DNA from: Hexactinellida sp. DTS-2022
Taxonomy: Eukaryota; Porifera; Hexactinellida
Assembly (NCBI GenBank): GCA_028753945.1
Contig: JAPNXP010000001.1
Location: 12,266,501-12,330,500 of the forward strand
Direction: 5' to 3'
Length of the DNA: 64,000 nucleotides
The position numbers and the translations under genes are program-made. Under the pieces are notes generated by a model, which saw nothing but the letters and a program-made list of their open reading frames with translations, ran no database searches and was not told the DNA's origin. Shown in pieces: positions 4,923 through 56,745 of this stretch (positions within the stretch are counted from its first letter, which is position 1; every line of letters begins with the position of its first letter).

Positions 4923-4976
4923 ATATATATATACTACTACAGTAGAACCTCGTTAGTACGAACACGGTTAATTAAG

Positions 4977-23990: not shown

Positions 23991-24019
23991 TTTCAATTTT
24001 GTGACATCTATTGAGCAAC

Positions 24020-27295: not shown

Positions 27296-28537
27296 ATGGC
27301 TAGTGCTGATGGCGAGGAAGATAGCTTCCTCTCTCACGTGGAGAGAGTGCGTAGCGATATACGAGCTAAGTTCCTGAGAGCTCACCTGGCACTGCAGGTC
27401 CGAGAGGCTGATCTGCTGGCAGAGCTGCAGAGACTAGCGGATGAGCACACGGGAGAGGGAATAATGCTACAGATCAAACGACTGTCGAGTTCGAAGGATG
27501 CTCTCAGGGATTCTCTTACGGAGAATGAGAACAAAGATGTTCTCGATAAGTCGTTAGCGCCTATTAATGCACGCATTGCGGCGTTAGAAATAAAGCTCCA
27601 GAGAGCAAAATATAGCTACAAGAGTGTGTCATTGGAATGGGACGTAGAGCTAGATGAGAAACTGAGTGTAGCAGGTGAGATACGACTTAATGCTGCGAAG
27701 AAAGGAGTACGAGACTACAAGCAGATAGGAGACCCTGTTGCGGTATTTGGGAAACACAGCGAAGTGCGATCTTCTTCACCTGGTGGGTTCTGGGATCCTA
27801 GTGGTATAGCTGTTAATCCAGTGAATAATTATATTTACATTTGTGATTTTGGCAATAATCGTATACAAGTTTATAACAAATCATTTGAATTTGTATTCCA
27901 ATTCAGTGATAAGATGAATTTTCCAGTTGGTATTTGTATCAAACAAAACAAGATATATGTCACACAATTTGACTCTCATTGTCTCAATGTATATTCTACA
28001 GAAGGGAAATTCCTGAACTCAGTTGGAGTGCAAGGAAAGAATGAATTACAGTTTGACAGACCAAGAGGACTTGATGTTTCCACTGACAGAGATAGAGTAT
28101 ATATAGCTGAATTAAATAATCACAGAGTTCAATGTTTGAATTTACATCTCAAATTTGACTCTTTTATTGAAGTTAATCTTGCTGCTATGGATGTCAAACT
28201 GACTTCTGATGAGATCATAATATTGTCTTTTCGTAATCCCTGTGTGTCTCTGTACACATATTCTCACCAATTGATCCGCGAGATTATTCCTAGCGGTGAA
28301 GGGAATCCAGTTTTGGTACCTTCTTGTCTCACTCTCGATAGTGCCTCAAATATTCTCATTACAGATCTTAAGGCTCATCGTGTCTGTGTCCATACTTTTG
28401 GAGGAGAGTTGATACACAGATTTGGGAATGAAGGAGAAAAGAGAGGAGATTTAAAGCCATCTGGAATAATAATTGATTTTGAAGGGAGGATTATCGTTGC
28501 TTCTTCTAACCCCGAATATTGTATTCAAGTGTTTTGA
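27296..28537 (+). CDS. NHL gene 1: coiled-coil plus six-blade propeller (413 aa)
   Basis: Residues 1-152 are charged and heptad-rich (RVRSDIRAKFLRAHLALQ), predicted coiled coil, and almost identical in all four plus-strand paralogues. Residues 153-413 form about six NHL repeats of the type P-x-G-I...I-x-D-x-G-N-N-R-I-Q-V, closing with NPEYCIQVF. NHL propellers bind protein or RNA and often follow RING, B-box and coiled-coil parts (TRIM-NHL). Here RING and B-box are absent, so an E3 activity is unlikely and a binding or scaffold role more plausible. No signal peptide or membrane segment is seen. It is a single exon. The leader GTATCCATTAGCAGTGCACT before the ATG is shared by all copies, but a hAT-like MITE has inserted just upstream of it. 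Confidence 0.88.
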   Translation: MASADGEEDSFLSHVERVRSDIRAKFLRAHLALQVREADLLAELQRLADEHTGEGIMLQIKRLSSSKDALRDSLTENENKDVLDKSLAPINARIAALEIKLQRAKYSYKSVSLEWDVELDEKLSVAGEIRLNAAKKGVRDYKQIGDPVAVFGKHSEVRSSSPGGFWDPSGIAVNPVNNYIYICDFGNNRIQVYNKSFEFVFQFSDKMNFPVGICIKQNKIYVTQFDSHCLNVYSTEGKFLNSVGVQGKNELQFDRPRGLDVSTDRDRVYIAELNNHRVQCLNLHLKFDSFIEVNLAAMDVKLTSDEIIILSFRNPCVSLYTYSHQLIREIIPSGEGNPVLVPSCLTLDSASNILITDLKAHRVCVHTFGGELIHRFGNEGEKRGDLKPSGIIIDFEGRIIVASSNPEYCIQVF

Positions 28538-29328
28538 ATACTCACTGATTAACATTTCTATTTTTTTCACATTTCCTACTTTTATTACAAACTATCTGTA
28601 GTGACTCTACTCAATTATTATCATTGTTTGTTGAATCCCGAATTGATTTATTTGTTCACATAAGGGGGTATCTTAATTTACTACATTTAACAGATTAAAT
28701 GCATTCTCAGTGGATTATATTTTTCGTTGCTTACTAGTTACTACCTTTGAGATCCGGCCTTAGTTGTTGGAATTTATTCACACTTACACATAACTTGTTT
28801 CATTATACAGCAAAGATTGCTACTATACATATGGTTGGTACAATGAATGGGAATAGGACCGTTGTGTACAGGACATGTGTAACACTTTGGTAGTATATAA
28901 GAAATATTTCCTTAAGAAATGAATTATTCCTATTCACTAGTAGTGATTGGTTAGGAGAACATTCCTTTATTTGAGACTAGCAATTGTATTGTTATTGTGT
29001 ACGTCTGAATTCGTTGGGAAACCTGAATTTGTCCTAACTTGCAATTGGAATTTTGGAATTTGTCCTAACTGTATAATTTTGATTTTGTCCTAACTTTCGA
29101 TATTAGATTTTGTCCTAATTTTTGTGCTGAATTGTAATGTATATTGTCCTACCTGCCCCTCCCCGAAAATATCGGATTTGAGAACTGATTTCAATACGTA
29201 ATATGGGAAAATATAGAATATTGAAATAATATGGAAAATATAGAATATTGGAATACCTAGAAACAATTATTTTAGGAAAACTTTCAAAATACCCATTATA
29301 TCTGCCCTGCATTTAACTTTCATGTCCA
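28538..29328. other. 3' flank of NHL gene 1, then TTTTGTCCTAAC repeats
   Basis: 28540-28760 matches the 3' flanks of the other NHL genes. 29010-29130 holds four diverged copies of a roughly 30 bp unit containing TTTGTCCTAACT. No gene is seen. Confidence 0.6.
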
Positions 29329-30810
29329 CTAAACGTTCTGCACATCCTTGGCAAAAACCTGCATGAATATGATCATATTCGCTTCTTCATCGATTGTTAA
29401 GTCATCACCAGATGAACCATTAGAGCTGGCACTATGTGGAATAATTTCAAGAGAATAATTTGCGCGTCCTATAGTTGATGCTATACTACGTATTGAGATA
29501 TTCATTTCGATATAATGTACCATTAAGTATTTTTCTTTATATTTATTTCTGAAATTTCTTTTTGCTTTTGTATTTGAATTGGCGCCCCTAGTTGTTTCAG
29601 TACCTTGAAGTAATCGTTGTAATTCTATATTATAATCTGATATTACATTGTCCAAACATACCATAAACTTCCAGAATCCAGACGTTAGGATGAGGTGTTT
29701 TACTTATTGATTTTAGGGACTTGTGAAAAGATTCTGCCCCATTGTTAGTGGCATTTTCATAAATGAAAACGGACAGATTAATTTTTCCAATTAGCCAAGT
29801 CCTACTAAAATAATTTCTAAACTTATTTACTTACTCTTTTTCAGTATCATTTAAATCAGTTGATGGTATCCCCATAGATAAGTAAACAGGTATTATATCC
29901 TCTTCTGGAAGCAAAGGCAGAGCCATTATTCTACGTATCCATATTGAAAAGAATTGATTTTGCTTATATAATTTGGAAAGCCCATGTTTCTGGATCTTTT
30001 CAAAAATTGCTTTGGTAAAATGGAACCAGCAACCAATAATGGTAATAAATGGAATGATTGATTTTAGTGCATTTCTTGAGGCCTGCTCAAAGTCTCCGAT
30101 TGCAAATGCTGGATTAAATTCAGGTATTATTCGCCGAATTGTTATCAACACAGCTTCGTAAAGCCTCTCTGTTTTACGAATCATCAGAATATGTAGCGCA
30201 GGGAGAGTATGGCCTCTAAAATGAATGAAAATTGTGAAGAGTTGATAGAAAAAGTCTGGGAACAACCTTAAACGTTGCATCAAACTGGATGTCTGTTGTA
30301 TTTCTTAAGCAATTTACCATTTGACTTGATCCCCAGATAACTGCAACTTGGTTCTTGTATATGATTAGTGTAATACTGTGATTCTTACAAGAAGGAATAA
30401 AAAAATTCTAGAGCCGAGGTTAGTTTCGGTTGTAAGATTCTCCTCCTCTTATACACGCTACTCTCCAAACTTCTGAATGTTACTGATGATGCTGCATCTG
30501 ATTCTCTACAACATTCATTGAATAATTCCCTAAGGTTGGTCGTTGAATTCTCAGCTTTGCGCTTAATTGTATTAGTGATAATAATCTTTCCAGAATAATT
30601 TGCCCCTGGGTCGTGACAGTGTGGACTGGTTAATTCTAGTAGATTTGTTTGCTTATTAATTTTCCCAGTACAAGTACAAGATTTGATTCGAAATAGTGCA
30701 CATTTGAGATAAATAAAATCTCCATGTTCTCTAGACTTTACATAGCGAAATCCTTGACATTCATAATTATTTGAATTTAGTTTCTTTCCTTCAATTACAG
30801 AATATTCCAT
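29329..30810 (-). pseudogene. FLYWCH-MULE transposase relic
   Basis: Three minus-strand fragments line up as one decayed transposase. The first (30810-30385) has a FLYWCH-type zinc finger pattern: GFRYVKS, YLKCALF, CTCTG, then SPHCHD. A stretch near 30290-30330 in another frame gives TTDIQFDATF, the first catalytic Asp of a MULE core. The second fragment (30283-29831) has AIGDFEQASRNA and GCWFHFTKAIFEKI, the second acidic motif and Cys/His motif. The third (29664-29329) is C-terminal. At least two frame changes separate them, so it is inactive. FLYWCH-MULE transposases are common in invertebrates. Confidence 0.72.
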
Positions 30811-30849
30811 CTTTATGTTTTTTTGAAATTCTTACTGATTCACAGCCCA

Positions 30850-31814
30850 TCGATCCACCGGCCCCTGGACATGACACCACCATATATGGGCATGGAATTT
30901 ATAGGATTGCAACCATTTGGATAAGGTCTCATTTGTTATTCCATTGCTCCTCTACCCACCCAGGGATACCAAGCAGTTGACCTTTTCGTCTCACGCTTTG
31001 TAGTAATGAGACTACCAACTCTGGGCAACTAGACTAATCGGCCGTACCGCTACTAGTGGGGTTTCGTTCCACTACTGGAACTCCTCAGGAGGGTGACCCA
31101 GTGACCCTATGACTCCCCTCACGTCTGTGGGTGGTCACGCTTCCTTATTGCCACACCGCCTGTGTGCCTCCTGTCGGGATGTCTCCATCAACGACACTCC
31201 CAGTCCCGATACTACACGCCTGAACAACCAGTTGGCAAAGCGTGGACCCGGAGGCCTGGGCAGTGACGCCTTCGTATTGAATGGAAGCCCTGTGAATGTA
31301 TACATGTCCCCCGACAATCCTCATCAGCCGGACTCTGTCCAAGTTGACAAGGGAGGAGACACAACAGCGATCCTTATATCCCCATTCTGGCCGAGCAGGC
31401 CTCGGTGGCCATTCTTCAGGAGTCTTTAACCCGACCACAGGCAGCTGCCACTGAGCCAAACACTAGTTAGCGACCCGCTTGGGAAATATTCTATTCGTTC
31501 GTTTCTAAAGGAACGAATATTCGTTCAATCATTTCGAATGAATATTGGAATATTCGTATACGGTATTCGTTTCATCCCTATAAGATATACTCAAGCACCT
31601 GGAACCTGAATGTCCTAGATTATCTGAAATCCCCACAAGGGGATTCCACTGAGCTCAAATACCTCACAAAGAACACAGCAACATTGATTGTCTGGATAAA
31701 TTTGGGTTCGAAATGACAGTTTCCGCATTTTGACCCCACTGTTAGACAAAATGTATCGGTATATAAATTGTAATTGTTTCAACTCGTTTTGCATTACCAG
31801 AAACATAAACTATC
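30850..31814. other. Unassigned intergenic sequence
   Basis: 30840-31470 is GC-richer than its surroundings and resembles no gene I know; open frames on both strands overlap heavily and look like shadows. 31487-31575 has TATTCGTTCG-type repeats. 31615-31810 is an inverted dispersed repeat, matched at about 50965-51110. Confidence 0.4.
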
Positions 31815-32781
31815 TTCATGTTGTCTCAAAAGAAATGTAGCTATGAAGCAAAATACAATTTCATAAAATTGATAGCGGGAATTTTGGAACCCCTAGGGGC
31901 CCCCTGGCATCGGGGGCCCTGGTTCAATGAACTGCCTGAACCGCATATTGCTACGCCACTGTGTATAGGCTAGGGAATTAAACTGTGTATTCTTGCTACT
32001 CCACTGGATACAAATTAATCCAGGGCAAAACATAGTCTGCCAGAATGAGATTGGTCACTCAAAAACCTGGAAGAAAATGACATATGAATCCCATTGTCAT
32101 ATCTCGCTTTAGTGAATGCAGTCTCATCTGCCTGCATCCACCCTAGACATGTACCTAAACATAGCAAAGGAGCTGAGCCTGACACCTCAGCGTTTATCGG
32201 CCTACTAAACCTCATAAGGGAGTCACTTCCTCTACCGTTGGCAGACCGATTAAGCGGCTTCCACTGTACTTGGCGATAGCTTTGTTGTAATGGCATGGTT
32301 CGTATTATTAACACATCTGTACTAATGTATTCAATTGTGGCTGTAATATAAGATAGCTCAGTTGAATAGACACACGAGTATGTGGTTCTATGGTTATAGA
32401 GGAATATGCATAAGTAGACTTACATAATATTAGTCACACACTGTATCTAGCTATAATTATACTCAAATTATACTATTTTCTCGATAACACTATTTCACAG
32501 AACAATTGTGTCTTTTCATATTACAAACGAATTCCTACAGTTTTTATTCTCCGATTTATCAGGTTAGTGTTATGATATAAACAAACTAATAGACTATGTG
32601 ATTATTCATTTTAATGAAATTATTTAACCTACACTATTTCTTGCTAGGATACAAACGCATAATTGAATTCTATTAAAACAAATCAATTCAATCAGAGATT
32701 ATAAAGCACCAAGCGTTTCCAATGTGGGACTTTCTAAGTGTGTTGTGTGTCGCATGTGGCATAGTCTTTGGACCCCTTGGG
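31815..32781. repeat. Duplicated non-coding block B (first copy)
   Basis: The block runs from TGTCTCAAAAGAAATGTAGC and aligns with 52045-52948, sharing GGCATGGTTCGTATTATTAA and TTATCAGGTTAGT. The second copy lacks a few short stretches. It lies between the type-I and type-II NHL genes in both halves of the duplication. Confidence 0.75.
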
Positions 32782-32935
32782 CAGAGGCGTAGCCAGGGTG
32801 CGGCACTTGGGACACAGGCCGCACCCAAAAAATGTTTAACCACAAAATGCCCACTAGTATAAAACAATAGTGCGTTAATGCCGCACCCATAATCTTCCAG
32901 TGGCGCACCTTCATGCAGAGCTAGCTACGCCTCTT
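32782..32935. mobile_element. hAT-like MITE (CAGAGGCGTAGCC ends)
   Basis: Ends CAGAGGCGTAGC and GCTACGCCTCTT are flanked by CCCTTGGG and CCATTGGG, 7 of 8 bases alike. The copy at the equivalent place in the other block (52949-53244) shows that the insertion predates the duplication. Confidence 0.7.
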
Positions 32936-32998
32936 CCATTGGGCCCACATGATCTCAAGATCTATATTACGGTCAATGTGACGGGGGTCAACAGAATT

Positions 32999-35900
32999 GT
33001 GACGCGAACGCGAACGTAAACAATAACAGGTTTAATGAATGTAAGAGAAATACTAATAAGTTTTGCTATATAACTAAACTACCTAAGATCTGTTTAACTA
33101 ATCTACTAAGTAAGAACCCTAAGGATATTATTAACTAACAACTACTGAGCGTTACATCACCCCTTCTAAAACATTTCTTCGTCTACGTAGGGCCTTTCGC
33201 ACCTAACACATAATCCTTATATTCTTTTGCTTTCCGTTCTCGCAGTGGGTACCTTCGTGCAGCTTCTTGTACCGCGTCACTGATACTAGGAGGGTGCTCT
33301 ACCCCTTCTGGCTCTTCTTCGTTCTCTACTTCAATGCTGCTCATATTGCCGGAAGTTGCTATGTATTCTTTAGTCAAGTGGCGATCCAATGTCAGCATAT
33401 AGCTACTTGCTTGACCAGGCCGATTGTTCTTTCAACCAATCCGTCTGCTTGGGGATGATATGGCGACGAGTGCCTCTTTTCTATCCCCAGCTTTTGACAC
33501 AAGTTCCTTACTCCCACCCCTTCTACGTTGTGTGCCTGATCTGTCAATCATAGGCGCCAAGTTTGGGATTTGGGGGGGGTGGGCGCCCCCCCCCCCCCCA
33601 TATTGTTGATTGGCCCCCCATATTGCTGTTTGGCCCCCCATATTGCTGTTTGGGGGGCTGGCGGTCACTGGGAGCGACCTCCCGGACCTTTCGGTGGATT
33701 TAATTTTGTATGAAAGTGGTCCTTTTGATCGACCAAGGGATGATAGAGAATCACGTTTGTTTACTCAATATATCCAGATTTTGTTTCTGAAGAAACAAAT
33801 CTAGCAAACCTCCCAGTGGCCCCTCAGACCCCCTCCAGACCCCCCCAAGTGCCCCCCCCCCATCTTTGATTATAAGTTCCAAAACTTGACGCCTATGCTG
33901 TCAATAGGGCTCTAGGCACCCCGTGCCCCCGATAGACCCAACCTCGTTCAAATTCGTGCACTAACGAGGCGGCAGTCTGATCTTGCAAGGGAACCACATT
34001 TCGTGTGAAAACGTCAACAATACAGAGGATGAGAGGAAATATCTGAACTTTTCATCAGCCCAAGGGAGAGTCGCTATATTCATGGCCACTAAGTCTCCTG
34101 GCCCTACCCCATCTAGCTGAAATTCTTCGAGGGGTACTCGTGCTTGATTTGATGGCTTTGCCTTTTTGCACACCAGGCAATCCTGGCAAAAGATCCGCGT
34201 GTCTCGGGCCATCCCAATCCAGAAGTAGGTACGTCTTAATTTTGCAGTGTCCATTTCTTCCCGAAATGACCGGCTGCATGTACTGCTTTCAACACTCTAT
34301 TTCTGGCATCAATAGGATACCTTTCGCAGCTGACCCGAGGATACTTCACCTTTACTCTTTAGTTCCTTGAAAGGGTTTTTCGGTACTTGATCGGACCTCT
34401 GCGGCTGATTAGGCTGAAAGCGCCCGCTGTATCTTCCCCAGCATCCACACTAAATATCTTATCTTCAAACACGCTCTCATCCTGGACTCCAACGTCGATA
34501 GGCAGGTTTTCGGCTCTGCTAAGGTAATCGGGTAAGTGATTGTCCTTACCCGGTCTGTGTACAATATGGTAAACATACTCCTCCAACTCGAGGATCCAAT
34601 TCGCAAAAGTCCTACGGGGGTCTCTCTGGTTTCGGAGCCATTTCAAAGGGCAATGGTCTGTAATCAACTCAACTTCTCCTGTTGCTCTTAGGTACGTCTC
34701 CCACTTCCGGCTGGCTGCTATCAACGCCCATGCCTCCAATTGGCCTGCAGAATAATTCCTCTGGGATGAACTAAGTGCTGAAGAAAAGAAGTCAATCGGA
34801 CGTAACATTCCACTTACTATGTCTCTCTGAGATAGTACTGCGGCAATTCCCGTAGAGCTAGCGTCAGCTTCGATTGTAAAACCTTTTCCCCAGTCTGGGA
34901 GAGCTAGCATCACTGGTTCTTTGATTAGTTTATACCTCAGCGTATCATATGCTTGTGCGCGTTCTATAGACCAGACCCAATCGGCTCCTTTTCTTGTTAG
35001 CTCATAAAGTGGGCTTGCTATTTGCGCCATGCGCTGGATATATGCTCTGTAAAAATTGATAGCTCCTAGGTATGGTTGCAACTCCGTCACGTTTCCGGGT
35101 ACTGGGAATTTTGAAATTTTTCTGCGGAGGAAGGCGTCGGCTTCCTTCCTGCCACAGTAACTACGTGTCCCAAGAATTCTACCTCCTCCCGAAAGAACTG
35201 GGATTTCTTGAATTTGACGTGCAGATTTGCTTGATGGAGTCTGTCGAACACGGCTCTTATATCTTGCATGTGCTGCTCGAAGTCATTTGAGTATACGATG
35301 CAATCATCGATGTAAGACTCGGTGCGTCTGAGTCCATCATACGCTGGAAAGTTGCTTGTCCGTTAACTAGCCCAAAGGGCATGACCGTCATTTCAAATAG
35401 CCCCCTTGGAGTGTTAAAAGCGGTCTTTTCGATGTCTACTTCCCTGACCGCGCCTGCCCAACAGGCTGCAGCAATATCGATGACTGAGAAGAACCGAGAA
35501 CCGTGCAACTTATCTAGTATAGTTTGTACCTGCGGAATGCCGTTCGCGTCCTTTTGGTGACTGAGTTTAACGGGCGATAATCTATGGCAAATCGCTGTAG
35601 TCCATCTTTCTTAGTAACCAAAACGACGTTACTCGCCCATGGCGAGTTAGATGGTCGACATAAACCTTGTTCCAATAGCTCGTTTAGCTGAGTGTTAATT
35701 TCCTCTTCCCAACGCGGGGGCATTCTCCTTGGCCTGGACTTTCGAGGTGCCGCGTTACCTGTATCTATAACGGCTCGCATCTTTGGTTGCGTCCTGGTTT
35801 ATCGCTAAATAATCCTTCGAATTCTTCCAACATGTCCACGAATATATCGCGCTGCTTTGGATTTAGGTCCGTTTTATGTCCGTCCATTAACTGCTTTAAC

Positions 35901-37336
35901 GAATCATTATCAATACCGACGATACGTTTTATTATCCGGGCCCTGGCGAGCGGATTTCCTCCCGTAGCCTTCTGAATTTCGAAGACGGATGTACCAAGCG
36001 TGATGGCTCCTGCTTCCCAATCAAAGGTTACACGGGCTGTATAATCTAAGGAATTGGCGGGCCAAGAGCAGCGCCTGTTCCTCTCCTTCCAAGACTTGTA
36101 CTTGTACCCAACGAGTATCCCTGTCCTGTAGCTCGATTGGGAATTCGATGGTACCTACAACGACGACGGGTGCTCCTGCAACACCATAAACTTGCCCAAC
36201 ACGCGGTTTTAGGTAGTTACTCAAACCTAGTTCTCTCATACTTTGCATGTCCATCACGTTCACTTTGGCACCGGTATCCAACAATGCACGAACTGTCAGC
36301 CCTCGCACCTTGACTTCAATAGAAGCTGAATCCTCATCTGTAAGTAGGTCATTGTGCTTATTCACCTTTTTCATGTAGTCCTTTCCTCTACGATTAGTAT
36401 TTTGTGGCTGCCCCCATTCCGAACTAGTACAGTTGGACGCGTCGTGTCCTCTTCTGTGACATTGGCTACATACGCGATCTGGGCATGCCGCATAACCATG
36501 TCCTTTCTTACCACAAGTAAAACATGTGAGGCTACTATACCTATTTGTGCTTCTATAATAATTCCTTCGCCGTCCGGCGGCAGGTTGATAAACCTTAACA
36601 CCTCTTTTGCTCTGGGTTCAATATCGGAATCGCTCGATAGATGATTATCTTCATTCTTCTTGTCCTGTTCAACGACTTTGCAAAAACTAGATCTGTTCTC
36701 CGGCTCCCGAAACCCGTAGCCTAGAGGGATATCCGCTTGGCGTAAGTTTTGTTGCACTGTTGCTAAAAGCTCTCGCATTTACTTGTCCGTAAATACGTAG
36801 CCTTATTGTTGTTGGATCCATTTCTTGGGTTGCAGAGTGAATCCTACTAGGAAGCTGCGTTGTCAGAACCATACATACTTGCCGGTTGAGGAAATGAGCG
36901 CGTTTAGCCTCTTTCCAGAGAAGGGTGAAGAATACTTCAATTCGAACCCCCCCTGGCCCAGTTCATACTACGAAAACCCGCGGTGGCCTCTAGTTGGTCA
37001 ATAGGCGGATCTAACGCATTACAAAGTACCTTGAGGGTGACCTCGATAGTTTCTTCTTTAATCGCTAACAGCACCGTATCTCTCTCGTACTCGTTCCTAC
37101 ACACATAAGATGGCAGAATCAGTACGGCTGCACGTTCTCCAGAATAGGCTGCAAGGGAGGTGGTTGCTGCTACGAATAGGGGTTGCCACTCTTCAACTCT
37201 TTCGTCTGCCTTCAGAGGAGGGATAGAGATATTCATCGGAGCGGCCATTTGAAATCAAAACTATTAGTATTTATGTGACGCGAACGCGAACGTAAACAAT
37301 AACAGGTTTAATGAACTACTGTAATAAGTTTTGCTA
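32999..37336 (-). mobile_element. Ty3/gypsy LTR retrotransposon, decayed
   Basis: In minus-strand order I see a Gag start (37248), two CCHC zinc knuckles (about 36450-36540, frame-shifted), an aspartic protease (LLDTGA, near 36285), reverse transcriptase pieces (YRPLN, DIAAACWAG, a YIDD active site near 35310), RNase H (ADASSTGIAAVLSQ), an integrase zinc region (CLVCKKAK) and integrase core (YHPQADG, VER). Gag, Pol and integrase are broken by frame changes and a MITE. The left LTR is 32999-33161 (TGTGACGCGAACG to ACATCA), next to the purine tract AGAAGGGG. The right LTR begins at 37273 and is cut after about 60 bp. It is inactive and absent from the second duplicated block. Confidence 0.88.
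33549..33897. mobile_element. hAT-like MITE with long G and C tracts
   Basis: Ends CATAGGCGCCAAGTTT and AACTTGACGCCTATG are flanked by the exact 8 bp duplication CTGTCAAT (33541-33548 and 33898-33905). It interrupts the retrotransposon integrase between the catalytic Asp and Glu. Inside are G8/C14 runs and three GGCCCCCCATATTG repeats. Confidence 0.88.
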
Positions 37337-38330: not shown

Positions 38331-38567
38331 CAGAATGCGCTTAGAGTCTCTAATGCATTGTTTATTTATTACACCTATATTGGCTTCTATAATAAGACTA
38401 TCAATGGAACCTAGGATTTCTACTAGAAATGAATTAAGAACAATCACTAAGTGAACTAAAGAATACTTAGTAAACCTAAATATATACGAAACGAACAAGG
38501 TTATTAATTAAGACTATTGTTAACTATTGTACAATATTGATTAGTATCCATTAGCAGTGCACTATTA

Positions 38568-43311: not shown

Positions 43312-43575
43312 ATCGCCACTTCTAGTTCGTCATCTAACTAACAACTGTGATTTTTCATATGTTTTGACCTCCTTTTTACAGAATGATGCGTTAGAGTACC
43401 ATTTTGGACTGTACAGACAAATGTCTGGAGCCAATTATCATATATCATATTGTCCAATACTAGAGTCTGAGCGGCGACTGAATGTATCTAGTATGCTAAA
43501 TTGCACCAATCAAGTGCAGAACAAATTTCTGTTCAAGATTTTATTAAACGATTCTCTAATTTTTCAGTAGATGAC

Positions 43576-45239: not shown

Positions 45240-45265
45240 TAGTATCCATTAGCAGTGCACTATTA
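45240..45265 (+). promoter_or_regulatory. Conserved leader of the NHL genes
   Basis: GTATCCATTAGCAGTGCACT plus six bases directly precedes the ATG. The same block occurs at 27271-27295, 38543-38567 and 55479-55503 even where flanks beyond differ (type I or type II). It may be a 5' UTR or core promoter element. Confidence 0.55.
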
Positions 45266-46510: not shown

Positions 46511-47217
46511 ATTCTGACAGATGCTCACTGTTAACATTTCTTTTATTTACATTTCCTATTTTTATTATTTTCATATTATTTCTCCTACCAACTATATGAG
46601 GTTACTTTACTCAATTATTATCCTTGTTTCTTAAATCTTGAATTGTGTATATGTTCACATAAGGTATCTTAATTTACAATACTTCATAACCTATGAAATG
46701 CCAGGCCAGTGGATTATATTTTTCGTTTCTTACTAGTTACTGCCTTAGAGATCCTTTGATCTCCTTCGCTCAGAAAATGATTTTATCTGACACTATTGGA
46801 AGACTAGAATATACGGATCGTTCGTTCAGTTCGTTCAGCGTGAAGCCCTTAAAACCTGCGTTCAGTTCAAGTTAAAATAAGTTCGTTCGTGAACCTTTCT
46901 TTCTCTGGTTAAGTCCTGTCTAAGACTACTCGCATAACATAATACCTTGTTCATTATTCAACTCAATGTCAATTTATCTATTTCCTCTATTCAAATTGAA
47001 GACAAAACCTGCTTCAATCATGAAATCTTTGTGAGGGGCGAGAAATTAGTATGTCTGCATATTCAATACAAACAGGTTATACAACACTACTAAAGCTAGT
47101 AGCTTTCTAGTATAGATACCCCAATTACGCATATTGCCCATAACAATATACTCCAAAGTTAACCTATTTCATATTTTGGGGCCCTTTTAGTAAATAATAG
47201 TAAATAATAAACAATAA
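46511..47217. other. NHL gene 3 3' flank
   Basis: 46511-47100 closely matches 56746-57430 after NHL gene 4, including GTTCGTTCAG repeats near 46820. The rest is AT-rich and non-coding. Confidence 0.6.
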
Positions 47218-48405
47218 TTATTTCATATTTTTCGTTAGAATTATTCCTCTTGGGTAATTAAACATTCCTACCTCATGTCCTGGTTCCCCTATAGTGTGGA
47301 GGTATGTGCCTTCTTTTGAGAATATTATAACTTGATTATTCATCCAATCACTGATCAGCAAATTTTGTTTTCTATCCAAACAGAAGAAGCTAGCTGATCC
47401 TATCTGCATTCCTGTACCCCGTGTGATTAGGGAGCGTATCTTCTCTCCCGCGTGAGAGAACACGAGTATGCAGGGAGAGTCATGACAGAGCACGTACACC
47501 TCATCTGGTGTCAGTTTGACGTCAAGCGGGTGTTTCATTGTTTGATGCGTTATGAATCTTTGGAAGTGTAGGGAGTCATCTAGGATTTGGATTCTGTGGT
47601 TATTAGAATCTGCTACGAACACATCTTCGTTGGTAGAGACGGTGATTCCGCGAGGAAATAGAACTGTCCCACACCAGATCCCTCACTCCCTAGCTTAGCG
47701 ACGAGACGCATGTCAGCCTCTATTTTGAATCGGAACACAGCGTGTACTCCTGTGTCCGCCACGTACAGGTTGTCTCGATGGATCACTATACCGAATGGCG
47801 CTATCATGTCTTGGTTTGTGAAAGTATTTAGGAATTCGCCTGTCTCCGAGAAGATTGAGACTCTACAGGAACCAAACCCTTCTGTGACGTAAATTATATT
47901 TGTGTTCTCATCGATAGCGACACCTTCAGGATTGAAGAGCTCTCCAGGAGCATGTTCTTTCTTCCCGACCTTTACAATCGGTCTCATTTCTTCATATCGG
48001 GGTACAACGGGCACCTCCTCCTCGACTACCTCTCCCACACCTGCGATCACCTGCTCCAGGTGTCCAGTGTCCACAGTTACCTCGGAACACCACGCGTGTC
48101 TCGGCCTGGGGTACCCTCACCTCTGCTAGCTTTTGCTCTATTTCAACTAACAGTCGCTCTTGTAACACTCTCAATTCGTTCATTTGGAGGAGACGCTCGG
48201 TTTCGGCTTTTAGTGCCATCAATTCTTCTTCTTTTCGCGTGCAGGCTATGGGTCTAGCGGTTATTTGGTCGCGTGTGTCGCGGTATGTGGTTAGGAGTGT
48301 CACTCATCGCTGCTGGAGACACATAATCAGGTGGTCGAATAGTTGGCGTATTTCCAACTCGACAGGGTCTACGGGGTGTATCGGGTCAGGGAATCGATCG
48401 GCCAT
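47218..48405 (-). pseudogene. NHL propeller pseudogene
   Basis: A start at 48405 (MADRFPDPIHPVDPVELEIR) is followed by an in-frame TGA at 48304-48306, a coiled-coil stretch (KAETERLLQMNELRVLQERL), a frame change near 48080, several NHL blades (GVAIDENTNIIYVTEG, DNLYVADTGVHAVF), a second frame change near 47660, and blades with VADSNNHRIQIL. The end at 47218 is about 25 residues short of a closing blade. Three independent lesions make a functional product unlikely. The nearest relative in the window is the minus-strand gene at 49372-50361, and both lie only in the second block. Confidence 0.82.
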
Positions 48406-49371
48406 TTGTTGTTGTATACTAGTTAGCTAGTTAGTTGCTATAGGAAAGGAAGTTGTTTGTAGTAGAATGCTATAGAGAATGTGTCTCGTATCTTATAGCA
48501 GAGCTAGGTGGTGGAACTGAGTGGAATGTGGCATCTGTTTGTGTGCCGCCTCTTCTGATGCACATGGTGACTCCATCCACTCAGGAATCTAGTAAAAGGA
48601 AATAATTTCATTTGTGAGTAATCTCACACCTCTCCTGGTTTTCCTGAGAGAGAGCTCTGTAGGATACCATATAGCTCAATTGGAATGTGACACAATCCAG
48701 TGCAAAGTACAAAATTATTTTCTTAGCTTAGAATCAAATTTATTGCAATTCTTACAGAAAATGTATAATTCAAGTAATAATTTTAAGGCCAAGTGAGAAG
48801 TGACGTCAAAGCTGACGTAGCGCCTACAGCTGCTTGTATATTAGAGGCACACAGTCTACATGCCAAGGGCGGCGGAAGCAGGGGGGCTAGGGTGGCTATA
48901 GCCCCCCTACTTTTGAAATAGGGGGGGCTCAGCCCCCCTACTTTCCCCTCATTTACATTATACTAATTTAAATAATACTACTAGTATAGTCTAGTAAAGA
49001 ACATTTCAGTACTATTTGCGTTAGTGAGTGTCACCAGAGGCGTGGCTATAGGCGGTTCATTGAACCATAGCCCTCGATGTCTCGGGGCCCCCAAAGGCAT
49101 ACCTGTCAACCTATTTGAGTCATATTCCTGTACAGGGCTCCAATTTTCCCCTGACATTGGCCAAATCCCTGTACACCTCCCAAAAAAAATTCTCGCTCGC
49201 TGCGCTCTTATGGGAGCGACAGTGGCTCCTATACGAGCATCGGATGCTCTTATGGGAGCGACAGTGGATGTTGAGAGTAGTGGAACCGTAATTTATATAA
49301 TAGGTGTGAAAATGTGGGATAGGATTTTATTGTTGTTTGAAAGAGAATAAATAACAAACTAATACAAAAAG
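48406..49371. other. Spacer with G/C-tract and CATACCTG elements
   Basis: 48868-48960 is a small element with AGCCCCCCTACTTT in inverted pairs and G6-G7 runs. 49098-49190 is the left end of a CATACCTGTCAAC MITE (complete copy at 54959-55294). GCTCTTATGGGAGCGACAGTGG is present in two direct copies at 49204-49266. No gene is seen. Confidence 0.55.
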
Positions 49372-50361
49372 CTAACTGAATATTTGGAGACAGAAATTCT
49401 TGTTATGGGACACACAAACTAATCTCCCGTTTGTATCTATTGCTATTCCATAGGGCAGATATAACATTCCTTGTTGGTGTCCCTTTGTTCCTATGGTGTG
49501 TAGGAGGTTGCCTGCTGGGGAGAATACTCGAATGGAGTTTGTGCCTACATCGCTAATGACAATGTTGTTGTTTGTGTCCAAACAGAAGAAGAATGGCCAT
49601 AACACATCCATTCCTTCTCCACAGCTAATGATAGAGTGTAGCATGTCTCCCTCTAGTGACAGTACCAGCATACACGGAGTCTTCCATGGACACAGTACGT
49701 GTACGCGGTCATGCGATACCTTGACGTCATATGGGTGTGATATTGCCTGATGTGTGATGTTCCTAATATGGTTTAGGTCTGTGTCGAATACACATATTCT
49801 GTGGTTACCGCAATCTGCTATGAACACCTGTCCGTTGGGATCTGTTGTTAGTTGTTTGGGATATTGGAATTCTCCGTTGTTCGATCCCTCCTTACCAATC
49901 CGCTTAACGAGGCTAAAATCAGTCAGCGAGTATTTTCTCACAGAGTGTATCATGTCGCAACTAACATACACACTATTTCCATGAATAGCTATGCCATGTG
50001 GATAATGCAACTGTCCGTCACCTAACTGATTGAGATACTCTCCTGTTTCGGAGAATATCTCTACTCTGTTGTTGCCATAATTAGCTACGAATATCTGGTT
50101 TGTAGCTTCATTAATGGCGACACACAATGGCCCATCCACACATAACTCGCCAGGAGCTCTACCTTGTTTCCCAGTAGCGACAGTGGGCAAATGGAATGTG
50201 GCGTAGTTAGGCCCTACTGGTACCTGTATAATATGCCTGAGACGGGAAATTCTCACTTCGAGGATTCGTGTCTCGCACTGCCTTCTTAATTCTGTCTCTG
50301 CTGGAATGTTCGTCTCTACGGGGTCTGCTGCTGGAGGGGTAATGGGATAGCGAGCTGCCAT
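49372..50361 (-). CDS. NHL propeller protein, short stem (329 aa)
   Basis: An intact single-exon frame. The N-terminus (MAARYPITPPAADPVETNI) is proline-rich, with a short charged helix (ETELRRQCETRILEVRIS) in place of the long coiled coil. Six NHL blades follow: ANYGNNRVEIF, CDMIHSVRKY, ADCGNHRICVF, a PCMLVL blade, SDVGTNSIRVF and the closing NKNFCLQIF. The blade-4 pattern DVKVSHDRVHVLC...PCMLVL matches DVKLTSDEIIILS...PCVSLY of the plus-strand family, so all share one ancestor. It lacks RING and B-box. It is divergently placed relative to the NHL genes on either side. Confidence 0.87.
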   Translation of the reverse strand: MAARYPITPPAADPVETNIPAETELRRQCETRILEVRISRLRHIIQVPVGPNYATFHLPTVATGKQGRAPGELCVDGPLCVAINEATNQIFVANYGNNRVEIFSETGEYLNQLGDGQLHYPHGIAIHGNSVYVSCDMIHSVRKYSLTDFSLVKRIGKEGSNNGEFQYPKQLTTDPNGQVFIADCGNHRICVFDTDLNHIRNITHQAISHPYDVKVSHDRVHVLCPWKTPCMLVLSLEGDMLHSIISCGEGMDVLWPFFFCLDTNNNIVISDVGTNSIRVFSPAGNLLHTIGTKGHQQGMLYLPYGIAIDTNGRLVCVSHNKNFCLQIFS

Positions 50362-52044
50362 TTTTGATTGTTTGTAGAAGATTAGTTGAATAGTTTAGGT
50401 ATGAATTGGGTAATATGGATAATCTGTGTATTTATAGCTGTGTTATGATTTGTTTGTTGCAACAAACTACAATGATGATATGATGATGTGAGTATATACA
50501 CAACAACACGAGTTATACACGTGTATGTTGTAATGTCTCGTTACTAGGATGCTGTAAGGAATGTGGTTAAAGTTCTCTATTCTGTCTAGAATAACAGATT
50601 CTCTGCTGCTAATTACATTGTGTCCCGAGACTTGCATGCTTGCTGCTGTAAGATAATTTAACCTCGGGACAAGGTTACTTTGACCCGATTAAGCGGAGAA
50701 ATTTATTAACCGAAAATATTTTAAGCTCAACTGTCATTCCATCCCAGAAATCCTGTGAAATTTTGACCCCATTAAGCGGATAAATCTATTAACCGGTGGC
50801 TCTATTAAGTGGAGTTGACTGTATATCTCAATACAGCCTATTTTACATTCCCCGCCAACCAGGGTTAGTAGGTTTTGGCCAAATTGTTAAAAACAGGTTG
50901 TTTAAACCAGGTTTAAACCGCCGTGTCCTAAAGCTAAAAATTGGACAAAACTGGACAAAACCAGGCGCGGCGCGAAGAGAGTTTATGTTTCTCGTAATGC
51001 AAAACGAGTTGAATTAATTACAATTTACATACCTATACATTTTGTCTAACAGTGGGGTCAAAATGCGGGAACTGTCATTTCGAACCCAAATTTATCCAGA
51101 TGCTTGCACTCCTTAAAATTTATAATCCAATTTGAACTAGTGGGGGCAGGGGCTCCGACACATACTTTTGAACCGGCCCCCGAAACCTAAGCTACGCCAC
51201 AGTCTATGGGGCTTTCAACTTTTCCACAAAAACTAAAGGAATGACGCTAACCAAGCATTGCATTATGTGGTCAATGCAGAATGCATGGCAAGATATACTA
51301 TCATGTTAGTTAGAATTATTTATAATATTAAGGTTGACACAAACAATTAATGACTTTGGAAAGGAGAAAACTTGAATTATAATGACTGTGAGGGTAAAGA
51401 CATTTTTTAGGTATTATTAGACTAACAATCTGTAATTTTGTCTCAACTAAAAATCCCTGTACAAATTTAATTCCCTGTACGACTGTATAGATCAGCCAAA
51501 ATAGTTTAATTAACTGTACAGTTGGCAGCCAGGTATGGGTGTGTGAAAGAGATATTGGGCCCCAGTAAATGTTAAGATCCTACATAGTGATGGTAGAGTC
51601 TGAATAGTCCATGTACATAGAATGAGGTCACGAATGAGGGCCCAATTTTTCAGGGGGGCAGCTATTCCATCTGTCAGAATTTATCTGAAAACAATGGAGC
51701 TACGATTAATAACTTTTCATACTTGCAAATTATACAGGGATTAGGGACTTTATCGAAAATCCAGTAATTTTTTTGTAATTATATTTGCTTATATTCCCGT
51801 TACTAAATAAGCAATGTACAAATAATGTTATTCTTGAAGAAAATAATTACAACATATAGTGTTAATAAATTTAATATGCAACTTTGGGGTGCGGCGATGC
51901 TACTATTCGAGCTATACGGTGAAAATATGTGTTTTAATGAAAATCGAGCGAGCTAAAATTTTTATACATTAGAGATGTGCCCAGGGGAATGAGTCTAGGG
52001 ATTGGCCTGGGTGAAGTTATCACATAGATTTTAACTTGAGAATA
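50362..52044. other. Non-coding, several MITE fragments
   Basis: 50650-50821 has a GCTCTATTAAGTGGAGTTGACTG end (family of 21045-21147). 50965-51110 is the inverted partner of 31615-31810. 51390-51536 is the right end of the CATACCTG MITE family. No gene is supported. Confidence 0.5.
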
Positions 52045-52948
52045 CGTTGTCTCAAAAGATATGTAGCTATGAAGCAAAATACAATTTCATAAAATTGATA
52101 GCGGGAATTTTGGAATCCCTGGGGGCCCCCTGGCATCGGTTCAATGAACTGCCAGAACCGCATATTGCTACGCCACTGTGTATAGGCTAGGAAATTAAGC
52201 CAGAATGAGATTGGTCACTCAAAGACCAGGAAGAAAAGACATATGAATCCCACTGTCATATCTCGCTTTAGTGAATGCAGTCTCATCTGCCCGCATCCAC
52301 CCTAGTCCTGTAGCTAAACATAGCAAAGGAGCTGAGCCTGACACCTCAGCGCTTATCGGCCTACTAATCCTCATAAGGGAGTCACTTCCCCTACCGTTGG
52401 AATACCGATTAAGCGGCTTTCACTGTACTTGGCGATAGCTTTGTTGTAATGGCATGGTTCGTATTATTAACACATCTGTACTAGTGTATTCAATTATAGC
52501 TGTAATATAAGATAGCTCAGTTGAATAGACACACGAGTATGTGGTTCTATGTTTACAGAGGAATATGCATAAGTAGACTTTCATATATTTAGTCACACCT
52601 GTAACTACAATTATACTCAAATTATACTATTTTCTCGATAGCAATATTTCACAGCGACAATTGTGTCTTTTCATATTACAAACGAATTCCTACTTTTTTT
52701 TTTCTCAGATTTATCAGGTTAGTATTATGATATAAACAAACAAATAAACAATGTGACTATTCATTTTAATTAATGAAAATATTTAACCTAATATCTCTTG
52801 CTAGTATAATTGACGCATAATTGAATTCTATCAAAACGAATCAATTCTATCAGAGATTATAAAGAACCAACTTCAACCAAGCGTTTAATTGTGGGACTTT
52901 CTGAGTGTGTAGTGTGTCGCATGTGGTATAGTCCGTGGACCCCTTGTG
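52045..52948. repeat. Duplicated non-coding block B (second copy)
   Basis: It aligns with 31815-32781 with small indels; for example a stretch after GAAATTAA is missing here. The flanking MITE follows in both. Confidence 0.75.
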
Positions 52949-53244
52949 CAGAGGCGCGGCGTAGCCAGGGTGCGGAACTTGGGCACAGTCCGCACCCAAA
53001 AAATGTTTAACCACAAAATGTCCACTAGTATAATACTATAGTGCGGACAGGGCCGCATTAAGGGTAGTCTGGGCCCGGTGCTGTCTAAAATTTCAGCGCC
53101 CCTATTTGTCTTACACTCTCTGGAGGCACGCTACGCGGGCTGCAGCACCCATAGCCCCTCTCCCTTAATGCGGCCTTGAGTGGGAAATGCCGCACCCATA
53201 ATCTTCCAGTGGCGCACCTTCATGCAGGGCTAGCTACGCCTCTT
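52949..53244. mobile_element. hAT-like MITE with nested CAGGGCCGCATTAAGGG element
   Basis: This is the same element as 32782-32935 at the equivalent site. A second element (about 53048-53178; ends CAGGGCCGCATTAAGGG and CCCTTAATGCGGCCTTG, flanks AGTGCGGA and AGTGGGAA) inserted only in this copy, after the duplication. Confidence 0.68.
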
Positions 53245-53446
53245 CCATTGGGGGCCACAAGATCTCAAGATTTGTATTACGGTCAATGGGATGGGGCCAT
53301 GGGGGTCATCAGAATGTCTAATAATTGGTTAAGGGGTCCACGTTTTCAAAAGGCTGGGAATCAGTGACTTAACCTATCAAATGCATGCAAGAGACTCTAG
53401 TTAACATGAACAAATCTTGACAGCCCCCTGGTGTCCGTATTAATAA

Positions 53447-54445
53447 AGCCCACCATACACGATGCAACAAAGTTGCATGCAAATTTTCGTGTATGTTGAT
53501 TGTTGCACGCAATATTGTTGCATGAAAATTGGACATGTTCAATTTTCTTGCAACATTGTTGCACAAAAATATGGAAATTCAGTACATATTTTTCAGATTA
53601 TTTTCGTTTGCATTTTTTCACATACTCAAAACAATTGAAAAATTCACATGTTCATGAGTCATGACTTTCTAGTGTACCTATTTAATTTACTACTTACTTT
53701 CTCAATACCCTTAATCAAGCCACCTATGATGCGATCACAAATGTATACACATATTAGAATATTGAGCACGGTTTTAAAAACACTGATCGTATTGCTGCAT
53801 ATTCTTTTCCTAGAAATACTACACATCTAAATTATCCACGACCCGTTAACGACGTTTTTTGATTTTTGAATGAATCTAGATTCTAGAAAATATGGATTAT
53901 ACACTTTGGGATTACACATGTACTAACCATTGTATCTCTAAGGTTCGGGTAAATTCTAGTTATGGGCAGCTTCCGGACGACAGTGCCCGAATAAGGGAGG
54001 TTTGGATGTATATATAAATATCCAGTTCTAACTAAGAATACCAAAATGGCTATAGCTTATTACTGGACAGACGATCCATCCTTACGAAATTTCTATACTG
54101 GATGTGTTAACTAAACAATTTCTTTCATCAACAGATGAAATGCACTTTGCGTTTCTCAATTTTGATCCAATCCTACACCCATGAGATCTCAATTTGCGTT
54201 GACGGGTCAAATGCAATTTCCTCCGGCGAAGTATAATAATTTGGAATGCGGAAACGACAACGTTTGTTTTATCCACAATAATGAACTGGGAAATAACAAA
54301 TCCATTGGGATTACACGTATAGTACTGATTTAATATAATATTTTACCATGTGTAATAAAGTAATTTACACGAAAATGATTGTTGCATGCAACTTTATTGC
54401 GTGCAACAGTTGCATGCAACAATGTTGCATTGTGTATGGTGGGCT
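53447..54445. mobile_element. PIF/Harbinger-like MITE, 999 bp
   Basis: Ends AGCCCACCATACACGATGCA and TGTATGGTGGGCT are flanked by TAA on both sides (53444-53446 and 54446-54448), the Harbinger target size. Both subterminal zones are dense in GTTGCATGCAAC words. The 700 bp interior has no transposase. It is absent from the first block. Confidence 0.78.
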
Positions 54446-54958
54446 TAAGGCTGTGTTGACCCGGTCGGGCCAGAATGGTCGATTCGCTCTACCGTAAATA
54501 ATGTTTACTGTTAATGAGATTTAAAGTACAAAATTAAAGAGTTTGTCCTCGAAATGCACACTCAAACCTGATATTAAAAAATTTACTTAATAGTAGATTA
54601 ATTTCATATATTTGTACGTGTTTTCTACTACATGACAAAATAATGAGTTTGGTAATTTGATATAATTTTATTTATGTTCATTGAACAACATGTGTGGGGC
54701 CATCTACTTAGCTCCCATGCCTAAATGGGGTTTTGGGGTGGAAAGGGTTGGATACTACTACTGCATTAATATGAATGGAGATTGCTATGAAAGTTTAAAA
54801 TATAACCTATATCGGAATTAGCACACCTCTTATTATATGTGTCCCCAGCGTGGCTCTTTTATTTACCTGCATGAGGCTGTAAATGTCTCCAAATAATACT
54901 GTTACGGTTTGGCTGAGGTCGGTGGAACAGATCTAACTATAATCCAAGGAACTAATTC
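54446..54958. other. Non-coding spacer
   Basis: I see no gene, repeat or signal that I can support. Confidence 0.4.
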
Positions 54959-55294
54959 CATACCTGCCAACTTATTTGAGTCATATCCCTGTACGAGGCT
55001 CCTATATCGCCCTGTACATTGGCCAAAATCCCTGTACACCCCAAAAAATCTTTCTTGTAAAGGTGAAAACATTAGTTTATATAGACTGTACAGGGAATCC
55101 CTGTATGCTCGAATATAATAGGAACAGATTATTTACACAAAACAAAATGTTATATTTAGATGGTGTAGACATGTTTAGGTATTAATAGACTCACAATCAA
55201 TAATTATTCCCTAGCTAAAAATCCCTGTACAAATTTAAAATTCCTGTACGGTCCAGCCAAAATGGTCAAAATCCCTGTACGGTTGGCAAGTATG
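54959..55294. mobile_element. MITE with CATACCTGCCAAC ends
   Basis: Ends CATACCTGCCAAC and GTTGGCAAGTATG are flanked by TAATTC on both sides (6 bp). AATCCCTGTAC words recur near both ends. Related single ends lie at 49098 and 51536 and near 6733. Confidence 0.7.
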
Positions 55295-55503
55295 TAATTC
55301 AAAACGATAGAAATATTGTAATTTAAGAATAATCAATAAGTTAGGAACAATTAATAAGTGAACTAAAGATTACTTAGTAAACCTACATAAATAAATACTA
55401 AGCGAACAAGGTTATTAATTAAGACTATTGTTAAAACTATTGTACAAAATATTGAGTGATAGTATGAGGAGTTGTATTAGTATCCATTAGCAGTGCACTA
55501 TCA

Positions 55504-56745
55504 ATGGCTAGTGCTGATGGCGAGGGAGATAGCTTCCTCTCCCGCGTGGAGAGAGTGCGTAGCGATATACGAGCTAAGTTCCTGAGAGCTCACCTGGCAC
55601 TGCAGGCCCGAGAGGCCGATCTGCTGGCAGAGCTGCAGAGACTAGCGGATGAGCACACGGGAGAGGGAATAATGCTACAGATCAAACGACTGACGAGTTC
55701 GAAGGATGCTCTCAGGGATTCTCTTACGGAGAATGAGAACAAAGATGTTCTCGATAAGTCGTTAGCGCCTATTAATGCACGCATTGCGGAGTTAGAAATA
55801 AAGCTCCAGAGAGCAAAATATAGCTACCAGAGTGTGTCATTGGAATGGGACGTAGAGCTAGATGAGAAACTGAGTGTAGCAGGTGAGATACGACTTAATG
55901 CTGCGAAGAAAGGAGTACGAGACTACAAGCAGATAGGAGACCCTGTTGCGGTATTTGGGAAACACAGCGAAGAGATATCTTCACCTGGTGTGTTCTGTTA
56001 TCCTAAAGGTATAGCTGTTAATCCTGTGACTAATTACATTTACATTTGTGATGGAGGCAATAATCGTATACAAATTTATGACAAATCATTTGAATTTGTA
56101 TTCCAATTCAGTGACAAGATGAATTTTCCATCTGGTATTTGTATCAAACAGAACAAGATACATGTCACACAGTTTACCTCTCATTGTCTCAATGTATATT
56201 CTACAGAAGGGAAATACCTGAATTCAGTTGGAGTGAAAGGAAAGAATGAATTACAGTTTGACAGACCAACAGGACTTGATGTTTCAACCGACAAGAATAG
56301 AATATATATAGCTGAATTAAACAATCATAGAGTTCAATGTTTGAACTTAAATCTAAAATTTGATTCTTTTATTGAAGTTATTCTTGCTGCTATGGATGTC
56401 AAACTGACTTCTGATGAGATCATAATATTGTCTATTCGTAATCCCTGTGTGTCTCTGTACACATATTCTCACCAGTTGATCCGCGAGATTATTCCTAGCG
56501 GTGAAAGGAATCCAGTTTTGCTACCTTTTTGTCTCACTCTCGATAGTTCCTCGAATATTCTTATTACAGACGGTAAGGCTCATTGTGTCTGTGTCCATAC
56601 TTTTGGAGGAGAGTTGATACACAGATTCGGGAAAGAAGGAATGAAGAGAGGAGATTTCATAGAGCCACATGGAATAACAATTGATGTTGAGGGGAGGGTT
56701 ATAGTTGGTTCTTGTAACCCCGAATATTGTATTCAAGTGTTTTGA
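55504..56745 (+). CDS. NHL gene 4, type-II flank (413 aa)
   Basis: It has the constant stem followed by six NHL blades. One residue is missing in the stem-propeller linker (HSEEISSPG). Distinctive blade residues are YPKGIAV and DGGNN (blade 1), QFTSH (blade 2), RPTGLDV (blade 3), LPFCLTL and DGKAH (blade 5), EPHGITI (blade 6). The 5' flank (55320-55478) matches that of NHL gene 2, but the last 40 bases before the leader (ATGAGGAGTTGTATTA) match gene 3, so the upstream sequence is a mosaic. It is single-exon, without RING or B-box. Confidence 0.88.
   Translation: MASADGEGDSFLSRVERVRSDIRAKFLRAHLALQAREADLLAELQRLADEHTGEGIMLQIKRLTSSKDALRDSLTENENKDVLDKSLAPINARIAELEIKLQRAKYSYQSVSLEWDVELDEKLSVAGEIRLNAAKKGVRDYKQIGDPVAVFGKHSEEISSPGVFCYPKGIAVNPVTNYIYICDGGNNRIQIYDKSFEFVFQFSDKMNFPSGICIKQNKIHVTQFTSHCLNVYSTEGKYLNSVGVKGKNELQFDRPTGLDVSTDKNRIYIAELNNHRVQCLNLNLKFDSFIEVILAAMDVKLTSDEIIILSIRNPCVSLYTYSHQLIREIIPSGERNPVLLPFCLTLDSSSNILITDGKAHCVCVHTFGGELIHRFGKEGMKRGDFIEPHGITIDVEGRVIVGSCNPEYCIQVF

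What the first reader, a model, noticed from the sequence alone, without database searches (positions are those of the whole stretch)
27296..56745. NHL paralogues vary at two equivalent positions in each propeller blade
The four proteins are nearly identical over residues 1-152 but differ in the propeller, and the differences recur at matching sites. The x of the P-x-G-[IL] blade entry is S/N/S/K (blade 1), V/S/N/S (blade 2), R/R/K/T (blade 3), S/S/Y/F (blade 5, P-x-C) and S/R/R/H (blade 6) in genes 1-4. The residues after the D/E of D-x-G-N-N-R-I-Q are F/A/F/G, FD/YG/WN/FT, LN/IG/LG/LN, F/L/L/I and L/I/L/G in blades 1-5. In NHL folds these loops face the binding surface. A constant stem with a variable ligand face would suit a locally diversifying recognition family, possibly undescribed.
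Basis: partly seen in the sequence, partly recalled or inferred. Interest (0 to 1): 0.88.

Follow-up and report, generated by a model that had tools for sequence, protein, structure and literature searches.

The report
NHL propellers with diversifying binding face
An animal genome, probably a glass sponge's, carries hundreds of related genes for one propeller-shaped protein that change fastest at the few surface residues expected to touch a partner, which suggests a large, fast-changing set of recognition proteins.

Summary
The four window genes belong to an intronless coiled-coil + six-bladed NHL-propeller family with at least 324 places on all 18 contigs of a 112-Mb animal genome, 264 of them full length and uninterrupted (lower bound). 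The full pattern is four codons per blade: P-1, P+1, D+1, D+2 of P-x-G and D-x-x-N. By the strand topology of the AlphaFold model they share one face. The eight basic RNA-pocket residues that one paper names for TRIM71 fall on the same four positions. 'Constant stem' needs correcting: silent changes are rarer there too, and stem and propeller halves have conflicting trees, so conversion/recombination contributes. Best reading: a diversifying repertoire of recognition proteins, working like the per-blade hypervariable WD40 sensors of fungal NLRs, on a TRIM-NHL-type propeller without RING or B-box. Ligand, expression and immune role are inferred, not shown.

The parts
27296..28537 (+). g1, intronless coiled-coil + six-bladed NHL gene, 413 aa
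38568..39812 (+). g2, same family, 414 aa
45266..46510 (+). g3, same family, 414 aa
55504..56745 (+). g4, same family, 413 aa; modelled by AlphaFold2 (ten-residue blocks from 141 on: pLDDT 88-98)
55999..56007 (+). g4 codons 166-168: blade 1 P-1, P, P+1 (variable, fixed, variable)
56053..56058 (+). g4 codons 184-185: blade 1 D+1, D+2
56125..56133 (+). g4 codons 208-210: blade 2 P-1, P, P+1
56173..56178 (+). g4 codons 224-225: blade 2 D+1, D+2
56263..56271 (+). g4 codons 254-256: blade 3 P-1, P, P+1
56317..56322 (+). g4 codons 272-273: blade 3 D+1, D+2
56386..56394 (+). g4 codons 295-297: blade 4 equivalents of P-1, P, P+1 (A-A-M in g4)
56434..56439 (+). g4 codons 311-312: blade 4 D+1, D+2 equivalents
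56521..56529 (+). g4 codons 340-342: blade 5 P-1, P, P+1
56572..56577 (+). g4 codons 357-358: blade 5 D+1, D+2
56662..56670 (+). g4 codons 387-389: blade 6 P-1, P, P+1
56713..56718 (+). g4 codons 404-405: blade 6 D+1, D+2 equivalents
49372..50361 (-). 329-aa NHL ORF of another subfamily, about 30% identical to g1-g4

Best explanation
A large, locally duplicating family of probably intracellular recognition proteins. Each gene encodes a helical (predicted coiled-coil) stem and one six-bladed NHL propeller. SHOWN: copies differ by excess amino-acid change at four codons per blade (P-1, P+1, D+1, D+2), which by strand topology lie on one face; stem and propeller halves have different histories in four of five subfamilies, so copies exchange sequence. 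FROM KNOWN FAMILIES: the same positions hold the basic RNA-pocket residues of LIN41/TRIM71, so this face is a ligand face. INFERRED: new copies arise by duplication, blocks of blades are reshuffled and the stem is partly homogenised by conversion, selection fixes new ligand residues, and the repertoire binds changing non-self or conflict ligands (pathogen protein or nucleic acid), with the stem oligomerising and passing the signal on. Without RING or B-box the protein would need a partner to act. Intracellular is inferred from the lack of an obvious signal peptide by eye.
Against: No ligand, expression or population data. DNA-level tests use paralogues of one genome only. Subfamily B has omega about 1 over the whole propeller and 41 of 237 non-comb sites above pp 0.9, so part of its change is not confined to the face. 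Synonymous rate at the 12 positions is raised in B (p=0.018). Of three further pairs, L004/L005 is extreme (14 of 24 comb codons against 6 of 239), but L002/L003 (1 of 22 against 5 of 238) is not concentrated and L002/L007 only partly (14 of 22 against 42 of 238). The stem is not strongly constrained either (pN/pS 0.51-1.03 in nearest pairs), and in C13 and C its middle is about as divergent as the propeller. Stem helices are modelled poorly (pLDDT blocks 40-81).
Confidence: 0.7

Rival explanations
1. Relaxed constraint: redundant duplicates drift, and exposed loops drift fastest.
For: Loops evolve faster in general; 24 of 324 places hold a stop and 48 are fragments by my flags; B has omega about 1 overall.
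Against: Relaxation gives omega up to 1, not 1.9-10.5; bottom-face loops of the same proteins stay at 0.20-0.49; the P between two variable codons and the D before two others are nearly fixed; 264 of 324 places are full length without a stop.
Confidence: 0.05
2. RNA-directed repertoire (a special case of the best explanation): the propellers keep the TRIM-NHL job of binding RNA, and the variable ring retunes which RNA (virus, transposon or own mRNA) is bound.
For: The eight pocket residues named in PMC7145526 sit on the comb; patient changes R608H and R796H sit at P-1 and are said to disrupt RNA binding, and the mouse counterparts R595H and R783H bind distinct ectopic mRNA sets (PMC9910693 passages); ring is K/R 16.5% against D/E 8.3%, bottom loops 15.0% against 19.6%; best folds include RNA-bound Lin41 and Trim71.
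Against: No conserved basic pocket: about one ring residue in six is K/R, while aromatic and small residues are common.
Confidence: 0.35
3. Allorecognition or gamete recognition: the variable face tells self from non-self of the same species.
For: Same per-blade logic as the fungal het-d/het-e WD40 sensors (PMC12222747 passages).
Against: Hundreds of paralogues; no obvious signal peptide by eye; allelic data not available.
Confidence: 0.1
4. Targeted mutation: a mechanism rewrites comb codons (templated patches or a hypermutator) rather than selection alone.
For: 49 of 98 changed comb codons in close pairs differ at two or three bases, against 23 of 140 elsewhere.
Against: The silent rate is only slightly raised at P-1 and at the P codon between two comb codons (alpha 1.43 and 1.33 against a propeller mean of 1.09) and not at D (1.08); repeated selected hits would also give multi-base codons.
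Confidence: 0.08

Closest known systems
TRIM-NHL proteins (TRIM71/LIN-41, Thin/Abba, Brat, Mei-P26)
   Different: No RING, B-box or filamin match in the four proteins scanned and three; intronless; hundreds of copies; contact positions vary instead of being conserved.
Fungal HNWD NLRs (het-d, het-e, het-r) with WD40 sensors
   Same: A beta-propeller in which four codon positions per repeat are under diversifying selection and map to the predicted interaction surface, with concerted evolution (PMC12222747 passages).
   Different: WD40 not NHL; repeats over 80% identical within one gene; HET and NACHT domains. Here blades differ from each other, variation is between hundreds of genes, and the stem is helical.
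SPRY/B30.2 TRIMs (TRIM5 alpha; fish finTRIMs, recalled)
   Same: TRIM5 alpha SPRY is under positive selection, and SPRY TRIMs expand by lineage (PMC2533329 passages).
   Different: Different binding fold; RING present; not a regular per-blade pattern (recalled).
TRIM-like gene of the same genome (L099)
   Same: By eye, a helical middle and a C-terminus with propeller-like repeats.
   Different: B-box by Pfam; RING-like Cys/His cluster upstream of the ATG used, read by eye in the open frame; Pfam finds no NHL in it.

Membership tests
NHL-repeat six-bladed propeller | NHL repeats above the Pfam cut-off | tested here: met
   PF01436 68.8-78.4 bits in g1-g4, cut-off 20
NHL-repeat six-bladed propeller | six four-stranded blades | tested here: met
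TRIM-NHL (RBCC-NHL) | RING finger | tested here: not met
   No RING in Pfam scans of g1-g4 or of L079, L002, L005; in-frame stop 9-12 codons upstream of each window start. A RING on a spliced upstream exon was not excluded by transcripts
TRIM-NHL (RBCC-NHL) | B-box | tested here: not met
   Same scans; 20 B-box matches in the whole genome, all 43 candidates scored, against at least 324 NHL family places
TRIM-NHL (RBCC-NHL) | coiled coil before the NHL | tested here: inconclusive
   Helices 8-52, 54-73, 77-133 but pLDDT blocks 40-81
TRIM-NHL (RBCC-NHL) | RNA binding by the top face | not testable with these tools
   Only homologous positions compared
HNWD-type NLR | NACHT and HET domains, WD40 sensor | tested here: not met
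   No such Pfam match in g1-g4
HNWD-type NLR | same few codons of every blade under diversifying selection on the interaction face | tested here: met
   (face by topology)

The most novel reading that the evidence does not exclude
An early-branching animal holds an 'anticipatory' repertoire of several hundred germline-encoded propellers, each with its own six-fold ring of some 24 ligand residues, made by recombining blades and positively selecting exactly the positions that form the RNA pocket of LIN41/TRIM71: a variable nucleic-acid or protein receptor system built on the TRIM-NHL scaffold.
Probability: 0.4. Interest if true: 0.95.

Novelty: new variant of a known kind. Interest (0 to 1): 0.85.

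Why it matters
Variable recognition repertoires are known on few scaffolds. This would add the NHL propeller in an animal, with a variable ring read directly from sequence, and ties it to a face whose RNA contacts are solved in LIN41. Two questions become testable: how animals without antibodies hold large recognition repertoires, and whether NHL propellers are a programmable ligand face.

Tried and rejected
Rejected: relaxed drift (omega above 1 with constrained bottom loops); a mutation hotspot over the loops (silent rate at most slightly raised); a single-tree artefact of recombination (three-tree rerun agrees; tree-free counts agree).

Weak points of the method: the site test is my own grid-based Bayes codon model on FastTree trees, not HyPhy or PAML, and exchange inside the blocks is not excluded. 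In one search the B 'bottom' fit stayed at its starting value; one search repeats it from four starts (0.49). In A the silent rate at the 12 positions is badly determined (omega 35 and 40, 10.5). In one search the P-anchor pattern also caught one place in TRIM71 that is no blade entry, and found five D anchors.

Rows dropped: of 99 loci fetched, 72 genes went into the five groups. Left out: L021 (stop inside), L034, L056, L057, L072-L078, L091, L093, L095 (broken, short or missing full frame), L001-L008 and L035-L038 (other subfamilies or second copies of fetched genes), L099 (TRIM-like). 'C13' is a label: L019 lies on C4 and L024 on C5. L080 and L081 are almost identical.

Led nowhere: naming the organism. 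Collagen COLFI and Frizzled are there; Wnt and Wntless gave no match, though the tool notes that nothing rang in its controls either. Glass sponges O. minuta and A. vastus lack Wnt (A. vastus paper passages), so a glass sponge is likely, not shown. The protein records listed (120 each) carry no names. A paper search by chromosome number and size (15 of 66 listed) did not identify it.

Full report
WHAT IS THERE. The window is G000:C1:12266501-12330500 of a 112,398,167-base genome in 18 contigs. Its four NHL genes are single open frames on the + strand and begin after an in-frame stop 9-12 codons upstream. Pfam gives NHL and other propeller-type matches, no RING and no B-box (E up to 1; some weak non-propeller matches fall below their cut-offs). 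Pairwise DNA homology of the four genes starts 28-169 bases before the ATG and ends 218-338 bases past the stop (searches show the flanks).

HOW LARGE THE FAMILY IS. Protein searches with four family members each scored only 99-103 of 1,120-1,225 candidates. Their union is 324 gene places on all 18 contigs: 264 full length without an inner stop, 24 with a stop, 48 fragments, 12 of these in both classes (flags set by eye from the tables). share no place. This is a lower bound. Relatives exist in other, unnamed assemblies: 402 and 441 proteins at E up to 0.001, of which the best 120 each were listed; best identity 83%.

THE TEST. Five subfamilies were aligned: A (8 genes, including the four window genes), 'C13' (16), B (17), C (14), D (17). 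Numbering follows g4. Whole-propeller omega is 0.66, 0.43, 1.03, 0.68 and 0.90. Sites above pp 0.9 in top loops against bottom loops: A 17/41 and 2/56; C13 8/41 and 1/56; B 22/41 and 10/56; C 8/41 and 2/56; D 25/39 and 1/55.

Partition fits: omega at the 12 positions with one propeller tree is 35.3, 1.83, 3.91, 2.64 and 4.71 for A, C13, B, C, D; with three trees 10.5, 1.95, 3.71, 2.68 and 7.45, p 1.2e-5, 0.027, 1.1e-3, 2.5e-3 and 6.4e-7, against bottom loops 0.33, 0.29, 0.49, 0.45 and 0.20. Tree-free counts on nearest pairs agree. Over the rule-based 24 positions, sites above pp 0.9 are 15/24, 8/24, 18/24, 5/24 and 20/24, against 9/237, 1/237, 41/237, 9/237 and 17/231 elsewhere: B is the least confined.

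THE SHAPE OF THE PATTERN. Averaged over blades and subfamilies, beta is 2.04, 3.69, 0.32, 3.83, 0.48 at P-2 to P+2 and 0.35, 3.98, 2.69, 0.57, 1.25 at D to D+4. Sliding the 12 positions by one residue drops mean beta from 4.10 to 0.78 or 1.63. The same comb appears as amino-acid entropy in proteins of other assemblies (120 listed proteins each, representatives of 90% clusters). Eighteen-residue ring patterns are distinct in 8 of 8, 15 of 16, 17 of 17, 14 of 14 and 16 of 17 genes and in 118 of 120 proteins of the first outside set; 24-position patterns in 120 of 120 of the second. In 12 disjoint close pairs, 98 of 288 comb codons change amino acid (49 by two or three bases) with 4 silent; elsewhere 140 of 2,807 change (23 by two or three bases) with 94 silent; two of the 12 pairs show no comb change. 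Three pairs from other subfamilies are mixed.

LINK TO A KNOWN LIGAND FACE. PMC7145526 (passages) says that the 14 RNA-interacting residues of zebrafish LIN41 are conserved in human TRIM71 and names R608, R625, R655, K672, R720, R751, R796 and R814 as the basic pocket; in TRIM71 the contacts are modelled. On 7qrx_A these fall at P-1 (608, 655, 796), P+1 (751), D+1 (625, 672) and D+2 (720, 814): 8 of 8, in 24 of 269 positions, p 1.2e-9; among K/R only, p 1.5e-6 (chain numbering 590-868 agrees). The other six contacts are not named in the passage and were not tested. The register profile came before this comparison; the exact 24-position rule was written in the same script. In mouse, R595H and R783H each bind a distinct ectopic set of mRNAs (PMC9910693 passages); the human constructs named there are R608H and R796H. 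PMC9070667 (passages) states that NHL domains bind RNA through the charged top surface.

THE STEM. Silent differences per site in nearest pairs are 0.063, 0.107, 0.010, 0.062 and 0.047 in residues 1-152, against 0.130, 0.215, 0.060, 0.126 and 0.068 in the non-ring propeller (A, C13, B, C, D). The effect is strong in B and the window genes, weak in D, and not uniform: in C13 and C the window around residue 76 is as divergent as the propeller. Stem pN/pS is 0.54, 0.67, 1.03, 0.66 and 0.51, so strong protein constraint does not explain its sameness. Trees of the stem and of the two propeller halves reject each other in all six cross tests in C13, C, D and B; in A one of six is rejected. Selection at the comb could itself bend trees, but likelihood gaps of 37-261 units point to exchange. 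So conversion or recombination partly homogenises the stem and reshuffles blades.

MECHANISM, WITH STEPS MARKED. Shown: duplication, exchange between copies, diversifying selection at one set of positions that share a face. From known families: that face binds RNA in LIN41 and Brat and, by model and mutants, TRIM71. Inferred: the ring residues choose the ligand; ring composition (R, S, Y, G, L, N, W in order; 23.0% F/W/Y/H) suits varied protein or nucleic-acid ligands; the stem oligomerises; a partner supplies the effect. The driver is most likely conflict with pathogens or mobile elements.

NOVELTY. Searches of open-access papers for NHL-repeat or NHL-domain expansions with tandem/intronless, sponge, positive selection, sacsin, Oopsacas or TRIM-NHL terms listed no paper whose title or shown abstract describes such a family (1 paper; 25: 25 of 1,192 listed; 43: 15 of 28 listed; 44: 3; 52: none; 65: 9). 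The word NHL is absent from the main texts held of the A. vastus and O. minuta genome papers; supplements were not read. A. vastus does have tandem single-exon AIG1 genes (section read). PMC3503706 (passages) notes tandem TRIM expansions in animals in general. The per-blade principle is known from fungal HNWD NLRs, hence 'new variant of a known kind'.

Noticed in passing
window 7811-18172 (-) and 18551-20701 (-): Giant ORFs of 3453 and 716 aa with Sacsin domains (PF25794), next to the NHL array.
   Followed up: partly
window 60963-62447 (+): 494-aa ORF with two MATH stretches and a Sina zinc-finger match below its cut-off, TRAF-like.
   Followed up: no
window 47236-47981 (-) and 23884-24333 (+): Stretches resembling NHL proteins of other subfamilies (tblastn).
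   Followed up: no
window 34359-35090 (-): Retroelement RNase H domain (PF17917) between the genes.
   Followed up: no
window 3654-4932: Dense direct and inverted repeats, one pair of 376 bases 93% identical.
   Followed up: no
L004 and L005: A pair whose propellers differ at 14 of 24 comb codons but at 6 of 239 others, while the stem changes at 23 of 158 codons.
   Followed up: partly
G000 C7, C11, C12, C13, C15 ends: Many family places seem to lie near contig ends, which may mean a subtelomeric bias (seen by eye; not tested).
   Followed up: no
L099: A B-box, TRIM-like gene without a Pfam NHL match, in the same genome.
   Followed up: partly
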